Assembly (NCBI GenBank): GCA_947623925.1
Contig: CANQID010000011.1
Location: 1-35,001, forward strand
Direction of reading: 5' to 3'
DNA: 35,001 nucleotides
Origin: an uncultured Bacilli bacterium
Lineage (GTDB): Bacteria > Bacillota_I > Bacilli_A > RF39 > UBA660
Below the pieces are notes generated by a model. It did no database searches. It was given only the letters and a program-made list of their open reading frames with translations, and was not told where the DNA came from. Below, in pieces: positions 8,152 to 32,839 of this stretch (within the stretch, counting starts at the first letter, position 1; every line of letters begins with the position of its first letter). A program made the translations under genes and the position numbers.

Positions 8152-8209
8152 GTTCTAATAAAAAAAATAGTAACATATATTTTAATGAATTATGGAAAGT
8201 AGGGAATAT

Positions 8210-9685
8210 ATGGAAAAAACACAAATAATAAAAAGTATTACTGAAAGAACAGGTGGAGAACTTTATTTAGGTGTTGTTGGAGCAGTAAGAACAGGTAAAT
8301 CTACATTTATAAAAAAAGTTATAGAAAACTTAGTAGTTCCAAATATAGCTGATGAGTATGAAAGAAAAAGAGTATTAGACGAGATACCTCAATCTGCTCA
8401 AGGAAAAACAATAATGACTATGGAACCAAAGTTTGTTCCTAGCAATGCAGCTTCAATACAAATAGACGATTTTAGCGCTAATGTTAGACTTGTTGATTGT
8501 GTAGGATATGTAATTCCAGAAGCTAAAGGATATGAAGATGATAATGGACCAAGAATGGTAAAAACACCATGGTATGACGAACAAATACCTTTTGTTGAGG
8601 CAGCAGAAATAGGAACTAATAAAGTTATAAAAGATCATTCCACAATTGGTATAGTTGTTACAACTGATGGTTCTATAGGCGAAATTTCTAGAGAAAATTA
8701 TGTAGAAGCAGAAGAAAGAATAGTGACCGAACTAAAAGAAATTGGCAAACCATTTATAATTGTTTTAAATTCTACGCATCCAACACATTCTGAAACACAG
8801 AATCTATCACAAAGTTTGACAAATATGTATGATGTACCAGTAATACCTATAAGTGTAGAAGATATGTCAGAAAGAGATATGTATTCTATATTAAAAAGTG
8901 CACTTTATGAATTTCCTGTATTGGAAGTTAAAGTTAATATGCCAGATTGGATAGCTTGCTTAGCTCCTAATAATTGGCTTAAAAAAATATACATAGAAAA
9001 AATAAGGGAAAGTGTAGTTGAAATAGATAAATTAAAAGATATAGACACAATTACACAACATTTTACAGACTGTGAATATATTAAAAAAGCATATTTATCA
9101 GATGTCGATACATCAACTGGAATAGTTACAGTTAATTTAGAATGCCCTGATGACTTATATAATCAAGTATTAAAAGATATAATAGGAATTGATATAAACA
9201 GTAAAAGTCAATTGTTAAAATTATTTCAAGATTATGAGGAAGCAAAAAAAGAGTATGATCAAATTAAAGATGCTCTTAAAATGGTTAAAGCAACAGGCTA
9301 TGGAGTTGCCTCACCAAGTTTATCTGATATGAAATTAGATACACCTGAAGTAATAAAACAAGGTGGAAGATTTGGAGTAAAATTAAAAGCAGTTGCTCCT
9401 TCTATACATATGATTAGAGTAGATGTTGAATCAACTTTTGAACCTATTATAGGCTCTGAAATACAAAGTAAGGAACTTATAAATTATCTTATGAAAGACT
9501 CTGATACAGAACCAGATACTATTTGGAAAAGCGAAATATTTGGAAGAAGTTTAGATGTAATAGTTAAAGAAGGAATACAAGCAAAACTATCTTTATTACC
9601 AGAAAACGCTAGACATAAACTTCAAACTACATTATCTAAATTAGTTAATAAAGGTTCAGGAAATTTATTTGCTATTGTCTTATAA
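8210..9685 (+). CDS. spoIVA: Stage IV sporulation protein A, spore-coat morphogenetic ATPase
   Basis: The product has 491 residues against 492 in Bacillus subtilis and is collinear with it. SpoIVA polymerises on the forespore surface using ATP and anchors the basement layer of the coat. Walker A is GAVRTGKST (24-32, Lys30); LVDCVGY, ENGPRM, VVTTDGSIGE and the C-terminal block GFGVKLKAVAPSIHM-like segment (RFGVKLKAVAPSIH) are family hallmarks. The start is ATG 8210, matching the MEK...ERTGG N-terminus and preceded by AGTAGGG; the ATG at 8192 is upstream of that site. Its stop codon lies in the first of two 25-bp repeats that bracket the Fic gene. In Bacillus hup follows directly; here it lies 2.6 kb away. 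Confidence 0.97.
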   Translation: MEKTQIIKSITERTGGELYLGVVGAVRTGKSTFIKKVIENLVVPNIADEYERKRVLDEIPQSAQGKTIMTMEPKFVPSNAASIQIDDFSANVRLVDCVGYVIPEAKGYEDDNGPRMVKTPWYDEQIPFVEAAEIGTNKVIKDHSTIGIVVTTDGSIGEISRENYVEAEERIVTELKEIGKPFIIVLNSTHPTHSETQNLSQSLTNMYDVPVIPISVEDMSERDMYSILKSALYEFPVLEVKVNMPDWIACLAPNNWLKKIYIEKIRESVVEIDKLKDIDTITQHFTDCEYIKKAYLSDVDTSTGIVTVNLECPDDLYNQVLKDIIGIDINSKSQLLKLFQDYEEAKKEYDQIKDALKMVKATGYGVASPSLSDMKLDTPEVIKQGGRFGVKLKAVAPSIHMIRVDVESTFEPIIGSEIQSKELINYLMKDSDTEPDTIWKSEIFGRSLDVIVKEGIQAKLSLLPENARHKLQTTLSKLVNKGSGNLFAIVL

Positions 9686-9696
9686 AGATGAGAAAT
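9672..9696 (+). repeat. 25-bp direct repeat, copy 1 (spoIVA 3' end)
   Basis: Spans the last codons and TAA of spoIVA plus 11 bases after it. It matches 11280-11304 at 24 of 25 positions (G/T difference at 9690). The two copies flank the Fic gene and its control region. Confidence 0.85.
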
Positions 9697-9734
9697 TGTA
9701 CATTTCTAAATGAAGTGAAACAGAAATTATATAA

Positions 9735-9766
9735 AATTAATTCAAGATAATTGAGTTAATTTTTTT
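9735..9766 (+). terminator. Intrinsic terminator downstream of spoIVA
   Basis: An 11-bp stem, 9735-9745 with 9751-9761 (one T-G wobble), closes the loop GATAA and runs into a T-tract. A second, weaker candidate (AAGATA 9805-9810 with TATCTT 9824-9829, then T-run) follows. The rest of 9697-9886 shows no gene. Confidence 0.85.
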
Positions 9767-9886
9767 CTATATGCAACCTTTCTTCATTTGGAGTTGTGTA
9801 ATTTAAGATAGACATAGAAATATTATCTTTTTTTGTTATACATATCTTTCCTAATTTCAATTATTCAGAAATTCTAAACAACTAAT

Positions 9887-10939
9887 TTAATTATTCCATT
9901 TATATTTTGTATACCTTCCACCAGAGATTTTAACAATTTTATCTTTTTTAAGTAATTTATTTAATATTCTTTCAATTGTGGTTTCACTTAAATTAGGACA
10001 CTTATTAATTATAAACGCTTTATCTATTGGAATAATATTTTCTTTAAATATACCTATAATTCTATCATAAGCAGTTATTTTTTTATTTTCAACAATATTT
10101 ATTCTTGAATCAAAATCCTTATAAGCATTTAATATTATTCCTAGATAGTATTCTACAAAATATGAATAATCATTTTCATTATTATTCCATGCAACAGAAC
10201 TTTTTTCTAATGTGTCATAATAACTATCTTTTGTTTCTTCAATAATTTTTTCAATACTGATATACTTTCCTACCATATAATCTGCTTTATATAGTAATAG
10301 TAGAGTAAGTAATCTACTCATTCTTCCGTTGCCATCATTAAATGGGTGTATAGATAAGAAATCTAATATAAATATAGGAATTAAAACTAGTAAATCACAT
10401 GATTCGTTATTAACTAATTCATTATAATTTTTACATAAATCTTCAATTGCAATTGGTGTTTCAACAGGAGATAGAGGTATAAATCTTATTTTCTTTTCTC
10501 CTTTTTCATTTTCTTCTTCAATATAGTTTTGAGAATTTTTAAATTTACCACCATAACTATAGCCTGTATATTTATATAAATCTCTATGTAATTGCAAAAT
10601 TTTATTTTGATTAATATCGATAAAATTGTAGTTCTCATGAATTAAAGATAATACATCTCTATAACCAGCAATTTCTTCTTCATTTCTATTTTTAGGTTCT
10701 AACTTTTTAGTTACAATTTCATTAATTCTTTTATCAGTAGTACAAATGCCCTCAATTTTATTTGATGAAGAAGTACTCTCTATTTTAGCAACTTTTGATA
10801 AAGTATCTAAAGTATCTTTTTTAGTATTTAATAAATATGATTGTTTTCCTTTGTATTCATGTATTTTACTTATTAAACTAATGATATTACCACTAGATAT
10901 AATACTATTATATTCTTCCATCAAATTAAATTTTCTCAA
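9887..10939 (-). CDS. Fic-domain protein with N-terminal inhibitory motif and C-terminal winged helix
   Basis: This 350-residue Fic protein probably transfers AMP from ATP to a target protein hydroxyl. The Fic motif HPFNDGNGR lies at 198-206 (His198 catalytic). SNKIEG at 59-64 fits the inhibitory-helix motif (S/T)xxxE(G/N), with Glu63 as the blocking residue, so this is a self-contained, auto-inhibited Fic. The last 60 residues look like a winged helix, suited to DNA binding. The start is uncertain: in frame only TTG 10939 or ATG 10921 are available, because the better-placed ATG (10946) is one frame off. Four half-site repeats surround its promoter, suggesting autoregulation. It lies inside a bracketed insertion. 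Defence or growth control is a guess. Confidence 0.88.
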   Translation of the reverse strand: MRKFNLMEEYNSIISSGNIISLISKIHEYKGKQSYLLNTKKDTLDTLSKVAKIESTSSSNKIEGICTTDKRINEIVTKKLEPKNRNEEEIAGYRDVLSLIHENYNFIDINQNKILQLHRDLYKYTGYSYGGKFKNSQNYIEEENEKGEKKIRFIPLSPVETPIAIEDLCKNYNELVNNESCDLLVLIPIFILDFLSIHPFNDGNGRMSRLLTLLLLYKADYMVGKYISIEKIIEETKDSYYDTLEKSSVAWNNNENDYSYFVEYYLGIILNAYKDFDSRINIVENKKITAYDRIIGIFKENIIPIDKAFIINKCPNLSETTIERILNKLLKKDKIVKISGGRYTKYKWNN

Positions 10940-11012
10940 ATTGCATCATTCTCCTTTTATTTGCACCATTATATCATCAAATGATGCAATTAACAATATA
11001 TTTGATGCAAAT
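10938..11012 (-). promoter_or_regulatory. Promoter and operator repeats of the Fic gene
   Basis: On the minus strand, TTGTTA (10996-10991), 17 nt, TATAAT (10973-10968). AATTGCATCAT (10939-10949) is a perfect inverted copy of ATGATGCAATT (10981-10991). A second pair, at 10959-10969 and 11001-11012, differs at one base. The four TTGCATCA-like half-sites cover the -35 to ribosome-site region. The winged-helix end of the Fic protein is the obvious candidate binder. Confidence 0.65.
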
Positions 11013-11180
11013 AAATTAGCATTATTAATTATGTGCAATATTACAGATTTTAAATAATATATTACTCAGTGCATAAGTTTTCCTTACATGCTGAACATAA
11101 AGTGTTTTTATTATAATTACAATGTTTTCTTATTTTTAGATTTATGTATTATTTATATCTTAATATTTTGTGATATACTA

Positions 11181-11206
11181 TTCATGTAATTCATGTCCTT
11201 TCATGT
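11181..11206 (+). repeat. Three TTCATGT direct repeats
   Basis: TTCATGT occurs at 11181, 11190 and 11200, so the copies are spaced about one helical turn apart. They lie in the otherwise gene-free stretch 11013-11279. Nothing else in that stretch is recognisable. Confidence 0.4.
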
Positions 11207-11279
11207 TATTGTTTTCGTAATTATACAACTTGAATTACTTTTTTATGTATAAATGTTTTAAATCAATTGTAACACTGTA

Positions 11280-11304
11280 CTATTGTCTTATAAAGATTAG
11301 AAAT
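11280..11304 (+). repeat. 25-bp direct repeat, copy 2 (spoIVA 3'-end remnant)
   Basis: A copy of the spoIVA stop region with one mismatch, followed by AAAGAT/ATCTTT (11292-11297 with 11306-11311) and a T-rich tail. This looks like the original spoIVA terminator left behind after an insertion. Confidence 0.8.
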
Positions 11305-11327
11305 CATCTTTTCTTTTTAAAATTATA

Positions 11328-31939: not shown

Positions 31940-32839
31940 ATGTATAATTATGATGATTATTATAGTTACTATACAAGTAGTACGGGATCAACTGGTATTT
32001 TTCAAATGTTATCAACATACATGTTGGTAATTTCTATTATATCACTTGCTATTTCAGTAGTAACGATAATAAGTATGTGGAAGATATTTACAAAAGCTGG
32101 AAAAGAAGGTTGGAAGGCTATTATACCAATATATAATATTATAGTTTTATTGGAAATTGTAGAATTACCAGTATGGTATATAGCTTTATTCTTTGTACCT
32201 ATAGCAAATATTTATGCAATGTTTAAAATATACATAGAATTAGCACACAAATTTGGAAAGACAACAGGATTTGGTGTTGCAATGGCGTTTTTCTCATTTG
32301 TATGTATGCCAATTTTAGCATTTAGTAATGCTACTTATAATGGATCAAATAATCAAATGACTTCAAATACATCATCAAGTCAGCCATTTAATAATATTTC
32401 ACAACAACCTGTAGAACAAACAAATAATTTTCAAAATATGAATGGTATGCAACCTATACAAAATCCAATGAATACTCAACAGATAAATAATGATCAAAAT
32501 ATAAATAATATGCAGCAGACAATTAATGCTCAAAATACATCTGAACCACAATCTGTGTCATTAAATTCTGTAAATTCTGTACAACCAAATCTTCAGCAAA
32601 ATGTTGGTTATCAAAATCCAGTTAATGATCAACCATTAGGAACACAACAAAATGTTAATTATCAAAATCCAGTAAATAATCAATCATTAGAAACACAACA
32701 AAATGTTGATTATCAAAACCCAGTTAGTACTCAACCATTAGAAACGCAACAAAATGTTAATTATCAAAACCCAGTTAATACTCAACCATTAGGAACACAA
32801 CAAAATTTAGAAGATACACCACAATCAACACAAGTATAA
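31940..32839 (+). CDS. DUF5684-like membrane protein with Gln/Asn-rich repeat tail
   Basis: The 299-residue protein begins with a Tyr-rich stretch, then three to four membrane segments (about 25-52, 60-75, 78-98, 110-128). The block FTKAGKEGWKAIIPIYN and FGKTTGFGVAMAFF are the DUF5684-type signature. From about residue 140 the tail is disordered, Gln/Asn-rich, and ends with four 17-residue repeats of the type NVxYQNPVNxQPLxTQQ. The tail probably faces one side of the membrane. Its role is unknown. The start is ATG 31940; ATG 31936 is out of frame. Confidence 0.75.
   Translation: MYNYDDYYSYYTSSTGSTGIFQMLSTYMLVISIISLAISVVTIISMWKIFTKAGKEGWKAIIPIYNIIVLLEIVELPVWYIALFFVPIANIYAMFKIYIELAHKFGKTTGFGVAMAFFSFVCMPILAFSNATYNGSNNQMTSNTSSSQPFNNISQQPVEQTNNFQNMNGMQPIQNPMNTQQINNDQNINNMQQTINAQNTSEPQSVSLNSVNSVQPNLQQNVGYQNPVNDQPLGTQQNVNYQNPVNNQSLETQQNVDYQNPVSTQPLETQQNVNYQNPVNTQPLGTQQNLEDTPQSTQV
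32600..32803 (+). repeat. Four 51-bp tandem repeats
   Basis: Copies start at 32600, 32651, 32702 and 32753, each exactly 51 bp and in frame, with a partial fifth after. Differences are mostly single-base. Length is likely to vary between strains. Confidence 0.88.

What the first reader, a model, noticed from the sequence alone, without database searches (positions are those of the whole stretch)
9672..11304. 25-bp near-perfect repeats bracket the Fic gene at the spoIVA stop codon
Positions 9672-9696 and 11280-11304 match at 24 of 25 bases. The first covers the spoIVA stop codon, the second looks like a displaced copy and is followed by a terminator-like sequence. In Bacillus hup directly follows spoIVA, so the Fic segment (about 1.6 kb) looks like an insert that rebuilt the spoIVA 3' end, as site-specific elements do. 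No integrase or transposase is present in it.
Basis: partly seen in the sequence, partly recalled or inferred. Interest (0 to 1): 0.75.

Follow-up and report, generated by a model that had tools for sequence, protein, structure and literature searches.

The report
Transposase-less insertion sequence carrying Fic gene
The two 25-base repeats are the scar left when a small jumping element, bounded by the ends of an insertion sequence but carrying a Fic gene instead of its transposase, landed in the terminator of the sporulation gene spoIVA; in a sister species the same Fic gene sits inside spoIVA itself as cargo of a different mobile element.

Summary
In detail: 9672-9696 and 11280-11304 match at 24/25 bases, far beyond chance, and abut a 1,583-bp insert (9697-11279). 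It is an insert, but not a site-specific element that rebuilt a gene end. The insert's outer ~130 bp and ~125 bp are the two ends of a ~1.12-kb insertion sequence with several other copies in this genome. Related complete copies carry different 25- or 26-bp direct repeats, so the repeat is a target-site duplication. The IS transposase (IS481-like, with IS1202-like traits) is missing; its interior is replaced by a Fic gene with its operator region. This matches a mobile insertion cassette. A same-genus genome has the empty site with one repeat copy inside an intact spoIVA terminator. Fic is 98% identical to that species' Fic (dS 0.05, against 0.33-0.80 for neighbouring genes), so it moved recently between lineages. 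In the sister species that Fic lies in an apparently undescribed skin-like element splitting spoIVA. The window Fic's upstream flank matches only Fic loci of that kind, so such an element is the likely donor. Whether Fic was aboard when the IS transposed, or replaced the transposase afterwards, is not shown.

The parts
8192..9685 (+). spoIVA, intact here (host gene at whose terminator the element sits)
   Evidence: Open frame 497 aa, 91% identical to G001
9672..9696 (+). Left target-site duplication copy; keeps the ancestral G at 9690
   Evidence: 24/25 match to 11280-11304; empty site of G002 has G
9684..9696 (+). 5' arm and loop of the spoIVA terminator, cut off from its 3' arm by the insertion
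   Evidence: G002 empty site AAAGATGAGAAATCATCTTT folds as an 8-bp stem
9697..11279 (-). The whole element, 1,583 bp: an IS-bounded, transposase-less cassette; its internal orientation (transposase sense, Fic sense) is minus
   Evidence: IS-end homology at both sides and TSD
9697..9722 (-). Right-end terminal inverted repeat TGTACATTTCTAAATGAAGTGAAACA
   Evidence: Compared with TGTACATTTGTAAATGATGTGAAACA of the complete IS in G002
9697..9848 (-). IS right end: C-terminal codons of the transposase and its terminator
   Evidence: 89% to the IS right end over 9699-9826, 85% to 9848
9734..9766 (+). IS-derived terminator-like hairpin that may replace the interrupted spoIVA terminator
   Evidence: Stem-loop in the fold of 9676-9790
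9887..10939 (-). Fic gene, 350 aa, TTG start; HPFNDGNGRMSR motif intact, inhibitory motif SNKIEG
   Evidence: Pfam Fic 6.9e-16; motifs; PADLOC SoFic 126 bits
10941..11010 (-). Fic operator region: TTGCATCA at -71 and -50, TGATGCAA at -9 (a fourth site at -29 in several relatives), about 21-bp spacing
   Evidence: Positions recur in most of 20 Bacilli homologues in unrelated contexts
11054..11156 (-). 5' flank found otherwise only upstream of Fic genes lying inside split spoIVA; resembles the 3' end of the endonuclease III-like gene that precedes Fic in some of those
   Evidence: blastn to L054, L059, L060, L068, L069 but not to the other Fic loci
11155..11279 (-). IS left end: upstream region and first ~10 codons of the transposase (MNSISQN)
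   Evidence: 88% to the IS left end over 11155-11276; alignment
11254..11279 (-). Left-end terminal inverted repeat, partly decayed: TACAGTGTTACAATTGATTTAAAACA
   Evidence: Compared with TGTAGTGTTACAATTGATGTGAAACA
11280..11304 (+). Right target-site duplication copy, one substitution (T at 11298)
11292..11311 (+). Displaced spoIVA terminator, one stem mismatch

Best explanation
9697-11279 is a derivative of a ~1.12-kb insertion sequence (IS481-like DDE transposase, IS1202-like features) in which the interior of the transposase gene has been replaced by a Fic module (about 1.3 kb: the Fic gene, its operator and ~100 bp of donor flank). It sits in the spoIVA terminator, flanked by a 25-bp duplication of the target made by staggered transposase cuts. 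It encodes no transposase, so movement would need a transposase supplied in trans by the related IS copies of the same genome: a mobile insertion cassette. The Fic module was recently acquired, most likely from a serine-recombinase-type element that interrupts spoIVA in related species. spoIVA lost its own terminator to the insertion, and an IS-derived hairpin may replace it. Shown by sequence: IS ends, TSD, empty site, loss of the transposase interior, recent transfer of Fic, donor-type flank. Inferred: mobilisation in trans, and that Fic was already aboard when the IS landed (about 60%; the alternative is replacement of the transposase in situ). Function of Fic: probably an auto-inhibited AMPylase-type solitary toxin or defence gene that represses itself through the TTGCATCA repeats (inferred). 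The confidence given is for the structural claim (IS-bounded cassette with a target-site duplication), not for the inferred steps.
For: Both ends match other sequences in the same genome: C10, C20, C4, C39, C1. C10 carries the transposase C-terminus and C4 its N-terminus. A complete copy in same-genus G002 has a 324-aa DDE transposase between ends that align with the window's. TSDs anchored on the TGT...ACA ends: window 25 (24/25), own-genome copy across contigs C20/C1 25, G002 25, seven related copies 25 or 26, all with different sequences; four further near-complete copies have none. Empty site with one copy in G002, intact terminator; G001 also lacks the insert. Fic dS 0.052 against 0.33-0.80 for eight neighbouring genes between the same two genomes. 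Fic groups with the G002 Fic (98/99 support). The flank -115 to -217 is shared only with spoIVA-internal Fic loci. G002's Fic lies next to a 528-aa serine recombinase (Resolvase plus Recombinase domains), with spoIVA split at codon ~127.
Against: Only one copy of the Fic-bearing form was found, so cassette transposition is not demonstrated. The left terminal repeat has decayed (TACA for TGTA; GATTTAAAACA for GATGTGAAACA), so it may be immobile now. Its ends are only 88-89% identical to the other IS, so it derives from a different or older IS copy. No complete transposase gene is assembled in this genome, only copies broken at contig ends. No other cargo-bearing derivative was found; the one candidate (G042 C27) turned out to be a decayed IS.
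Confidence: 0.9

Rival explanations
1. Replacement in situ: an ordinary complete IS landed at the spoIVA terminator and made the 25-bp duplication; later its transposase interior was replaced by the Fic segment through illegitimate recombination, so the Fic unit never transposed.
For: Same final structure; only one copy known; the Fic/IS junctions show short similarity stretches; the likely Fic donor type lives in spoIVA only 1.2 kb away.
Against: Fic lies opposite to spoIVA here but in the same direction as spoIVA in the spoIVA-internal elements, so a simple local deletion does not give this structure. Mobile insertion cassettes are an established outcome for other ISs (MIC231, cited in PMC2266710 and PMC6542083).
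Confidence: 0.35
2. Site-specific (integrase-type) element: the 25-bp repeats are attL/attR and the insert rebuilt the spoIVA 3' end.
For: Direct repeat covers the gene end; genuine att-flanked elements exist inside spoIVA in relatives.
Against: Elements with the same kind of ends carry different repeats at other sites; both ends are IS ends; no recombinase in the insert; the repeat is absent from the spoIVA-internal att sites.
Confidence: 0.02
3. Chance or vertically inherited repeat, with Fic native to this locus.
For: None found beyond the possibility of a duplicated terminator.
Against: Zero such pairs in 30 simulations; empty sites in both same-genus genomes; Fic found in 10 of 193 family genomes in varied contexts.
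Confidence: 0.01

Closest known systems
Mobile insertion cassettes (MIC231 of Bacillus cereus, from IS231 of the IS4 family)
   Same: IS ends bound one or more passenger genes, transposase gene absent, target duplicated, related transposase-bearing IS in the same genome
   Different: Different IS lineage (IS481/IS1202-like), 25-bp TSD, Fic cargo; mobility in trans not shown
IS481 family
   Same: Transposase best matches NCBIfam IS481 (175 bits, E 1.9e-51); ~1.1 kb; TG...CA ends
   Different: Below the curated cut-off of 224 bits; 25-26-bp TSD where PMC10045372 reports mostly 6 and some ~15 bp for prokaryotic IS481 members
IS1202 family (Harmer et al. 2023, PMC10132070)
   Same: Long TSD (IS1202 27 bp, ISSeq2 28 bp), TGT...ACA ends, ~26-bp imperfect TIRs, Q at E+7 in most of the related transposases examined
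   Different: Transposase 313-324 aa against 394-507; IS 1.12 kb against 1.3-1.75 kb; E+7 is N in the copies closest to the window's
IS481EU elements of parabasalids (PMC10045372)
   Same: IS481-type DDE core with ~25-bp TSD among the TSD classes
   Different: Eukaryotic; TSD length varies within one element family (about 4, 15, 25)
SoFic-type solitary Fic proteins
   Same: PADLOC SoFic 126 bits; Fic motif HPFxDGNGRxxR; inhibitory motif (S/T)xxxEG; PDB 8uqu 265 bits over nearly the full length
   Different: NCBIfam SoFic equivalog scores far below cut-off (46 of 550)
Sporulation-gene intervening elements: skin (sigK), SPbeta (spsM), gin (gerE, PMC5595907), yin (yabG, PMC10747680)
   Same: Relatives' spoIVA is split by serine-recombinase elements with att sites that would restore the frame on excision; the window's Fic most likely came from such an element
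   Different: Target is spoIVA; elements carry Fic or other cargo; excision during sporulation not tested. The window insert itself is not of this kind

Membership tests
Mobile insertion cassette (MIC) | Both ends are ends of an IS, including terminal inverted repeats | tested here: met
   88-89% to both IS ends; left repeat partly decayed
Mobile insertion cassette (MIC) | Transposase gene absent, passenger gene present | tested here: met
   Only the first ~10 and last ~35 codons of the transposase remain; Fic between them
Mobile insertion cassette (MIC) | Target-site duplication of the length made by the parent IS | tested here: met
   25 bp; 10 of 14 copies, the window included, have 25 or 26 bp
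Mobile insertion cassette (MIC) | Related transposase-bearing IS in the same genome | tested here: inconclusive
   Ends and transposase fragments at contig edges; no complete transposase gene assembled
Mobile insertion cassette (MIC) | Moves as a unit when transposase is supplied in trans | not testable with these tools
   Single copy only; needs a bench assay
IS481 family (parent IS) | Transposase passes the family profile | tested here: not met
   175 bits against cut-off 224, but best of all families
IS481 family (parent IS) | TSD mostly 6, some ~15 bp (PMC10045372) | tested here: not met
   25-26 bp
IS1202 family (parent IS) | TSD 3-5 or 16-28 bp (PMC10132070) | tested here: met
   25-26 bp
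IS1202 family (parent IS) | Q at the seventh residue after the catalytic E | tested here: inconclusive
   Q in L099, L100, L101, L103, L104, L106, L109; N in L047, L094, L095, L096
IS1202 family (parent IS) | Transposase 394-507 aa, IS 1.3-1.75 kb | tested here: not met
   313-324 aa; 1.12-1.14 kb
Integrase-type site-specific element | Constant att core shared by all insertions | tested here: not met
   Repeats differ between copies
Integrase-type site-specific element | Recombinase gene | tested here: not met
   None in 9697-11279
Auto-inhibited Fic protein (N-terminal inhibitory helix) | Fic motif and (S/T)xxxE(G/N) before it | tested here: met
   HPFNDGNGRMSR and SNKIEG, present in all 22 proteins compared
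Auto-inhibited Fic protein (N-terminal inhibitory helix) | AMPylation activity relieved by removing the inhibitory Glu | not testable with these tools
   Needs biochemistry

The most novel reading that the evidence does not exclude
One self-regulated Fic module moves between two unrelated kinds of mobile DNA that both sit at the sporulation gene spoIVA: serine-recombinase-type elements that split spoIVA at codon ~127 in several genera (excised in sporulating mother cells like skin, restoring spoIVA), and an IS481/IS1202-type cassette at its terminator. spoIVA would then be a developmental integration site for elements carrying defence-type genes.
Probability: 0.4. Interest if true: 0.65.

Novelty: new variant of a known kind. 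Interest (0 to 1): 0.5.

Why it matters
It shows how a solitary Fic gene (defence-type by similarity) is spread without its own mobility genes: as cargo of an att-flanked element in one species and between IS ends in a sister species. The parent IS combines a short IS481-like transposase with the 25-26-bp target duplications otherwise listed for IS1202 and the eukaryotic IS481EU elements, which makes the question of how these transposases set TSD length testable within one bacterial family. The search also exposed spoIVA as an apparently undescribed target of skin-like elements.

Tried and rejected
Site-specific element reading: rejected by copy-specific repeats. Second cargo-bearing derivative: an end-pair search in 30 IS-positive genomes gave one candidate, G042 C27 7936-12327, which is a decayed IS plus an unrelated end. 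Fic or transposase relatives, or the IS/Fic junction, in viral contigs: none. Plasmids: only distant Fic genes. Hairpin or terminator preference of the IS: folds of ten joined targets gave no consistent signal.

Full report
OBSERVATION. The pair 9672-9696 / 11280-11304 is real (24/25) and beyond chance: thirty order-3 Markov versions of the window had no such pair within 3 kb. The core 18-mer has no other exact copy in the genome. The segment between the repeats, 9697-11279, is 1,583 bp long and holds one gene, a 350-aa Fic protein on the minus strand.

THE ENDS ARE IS ENDS. Searching the own genome with this segment gave its significant matches in its outer parts: 9695-9826 matches C10 and C20, and 11155-11356 matches C4, C39 and C1, mostly at contig edges as expected of a repeated element; the few inner matches are short and weak. 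C10 carries the end of a transposase reading frame and C4 its start. Same-genus genome G002 has a complete copy (C18) of ~1.12 kb with a 324-aa transposase. Its best profile is NCBIfam IS481 (175 bits, cut-off 224), with Pfam rve domains. The window's outer parts are 88-89% identical to the two ends of that IS. Alignment puts the left junction after the first ~10 transposase codons and the right junction at about the last 35 codons. So the transposase interior has been replaced by the Fic module.

THE REPEAT IS A TARGET DUPLICATION. Anchoring on the TGT...ACA ends, direct repeats were measured for 14 copies: the window 25 bp (24/25), an own-genome copy spanning contigs C20/C1 25 bp (GAAAAATACTAACTTTCTTTAAATT), G002 25 bp, three further copies of 25 bp and four of 26 bp, every sequence different; four copies had none. 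In G002 the spoIVA 3' end and the following metallophosphoesterase are joined with a single copy of the repeat. The sequence there, AAAGATGAGAAATCATCTTTTTTT, is a perfect spoIVA terminator. G001 has no insert either. The insertion cut this hairpin one base into its 3' arm; the left copy keeps the ancestral G, the right copy has a T. An IS-derived hairpin at 9734-9766 may terminate spoIVA transcripts now.

WHERE FIC CAME FROM. Between window and G002, Fic has dS 0.052 while eight neighbouring genes have 0.33-0.80, so Fic was transferred after the species split. The closest Fic is G002's (tree support 98/99). In the genome collection, 27 loci encode relatives. In at least seven, spoIVA pieces flank or adjoin the Fic gene: an N-terminal part of ~127 codons before it and/or the C-terminal part after it, with a serine recombinase (L054, L059, L066, L070) or a Mob_Pre relaxase (L060, L068, L069). 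The breakpoints carry att-like halves: CCATGG|GAAGTTTACCCAAAAGTGATACC on one side and GGTATCACTTTTTAGGTTCACGG|TGGTATGATG on the other. Joined, they restore CCA-TGG-TAT in frame, and the element side forms an inverted repeat GGTATCAC...GTGATACC. The window's Fic shares its -115 to -217 flank only with L054, L059, L060, L068 and L069, all spoIVA-internal; other Fic loci share only the operator region or a little more. Hence a spoIVA-type element is the likely donor.

HOW IT WORKS. Shown: IS ends, TSD, empty site, loss of transposase interior, recent horizontal acquisition. Inferred: mobilisation by transposase in trans, as for mobile insertion cassettes such as MIC231 (cited in PMC2266710, PMC6542083). 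Not decided: whether Fic was aboard at landing (about 60%) or replaced the transposase in situ (about 35%). The opposite orientation of Fic relative to spoIVA argues against a simple local origin. The left terminal repeat has decayed, so the unit may be immobile today. Fic keeps its catalytic motif and the SNKIEG inhibitory motif, and its promoter region carries TTGCATCA/TGATGCAA half-sites about 21 bp apart that recur in most of the 20 Bacilli homologues; with a weak winged-helix-like match at the C-terminus (TrmB, E 0.025) this suggests autoregulation. PADLOC places it with SoFic (126 bits), a candidate defence gene; function is not tested.

COMPARISON. As a structure it meets the sequence criteria of a mobile insertion cassette. 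The parent IS is intermediate: IS481-like in transposase size and profile, IS1202-like in TSD length, TGT...ACA ends and, in most of the related copies, Q at E+7 (PMC10132070). It passes neither family's full set of tests. According to PMC10045372, prokaryotic IS481 members have mostly 6-bp and some ~15-bp TSDs, IS1202 members up to 24-29 bp, and the eukaryotic IS481EU ~4, ~15 or ~25 bp; that paper places IS1202 inside IS481. The present IS fits that link.

LIMITS. All genomes are metagenome-assembled, as far as their titles show; IS copies break contigs. G002's spoIVA halves lie on two contigs (C38 and C12), so its element is not fully assembled. No paper on spoIVA intervening elements was found in the held library, which is not the whole literature. 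Excision during sporulation is untested.

Noticed in passing
L054, L059, L060, L066, L068, L069, L070; G002, G004, G023, G048, G054, G150, G153, G171, G219, G230, G251: spoIVA is split at codon ~127 (att core CC(A/T)TGG|TAT) by serine-recombinase-type elements, one of them about 5 kb on a single contig (G219, L166, without Fic). An apparently undescribed skin-like integration site in this family of Bacilli MAGs; in a few of these genomes the break coincides with a contig end.
   Followed up: partly
G011, G083, G245, G252: spoIVA is split on two contigs near codon ~404-413 instead, suggesting a second integration site in the same gene.
   Followed up: no
L054 upstream of Fic (about 190-240 bp before the start): An attP-like hybrid (GGATATCATGAAAACAGAGTATTGG...GTTGAATAAGTGATAC) precedes Fic in G002, suggesting two spoIVA elements in tandem.
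   Followed up: partly
window 10941-11010 and upstream of 19 homologous Fic genes: Regular TTGCATCA/TGATGCAA half-sites at about -71, -50, -29, -9: likely operator of a self-repressing Fic.
   Followed up: partly
G037, G169, G051, G081 and others: The parent IS family occurs in many copies, mostly at contig edges, so it is probably active and a main cause of assembly breaks in this family.
   Followed up: no
L064: A Fic relative lies directly upstream of an intact spoIVA, a third arrangement of Fic at this gene.
   Followed up: no
window 32627-32790: Tandem direct repeat with a unit of about 51 bp.
   Followed up: no
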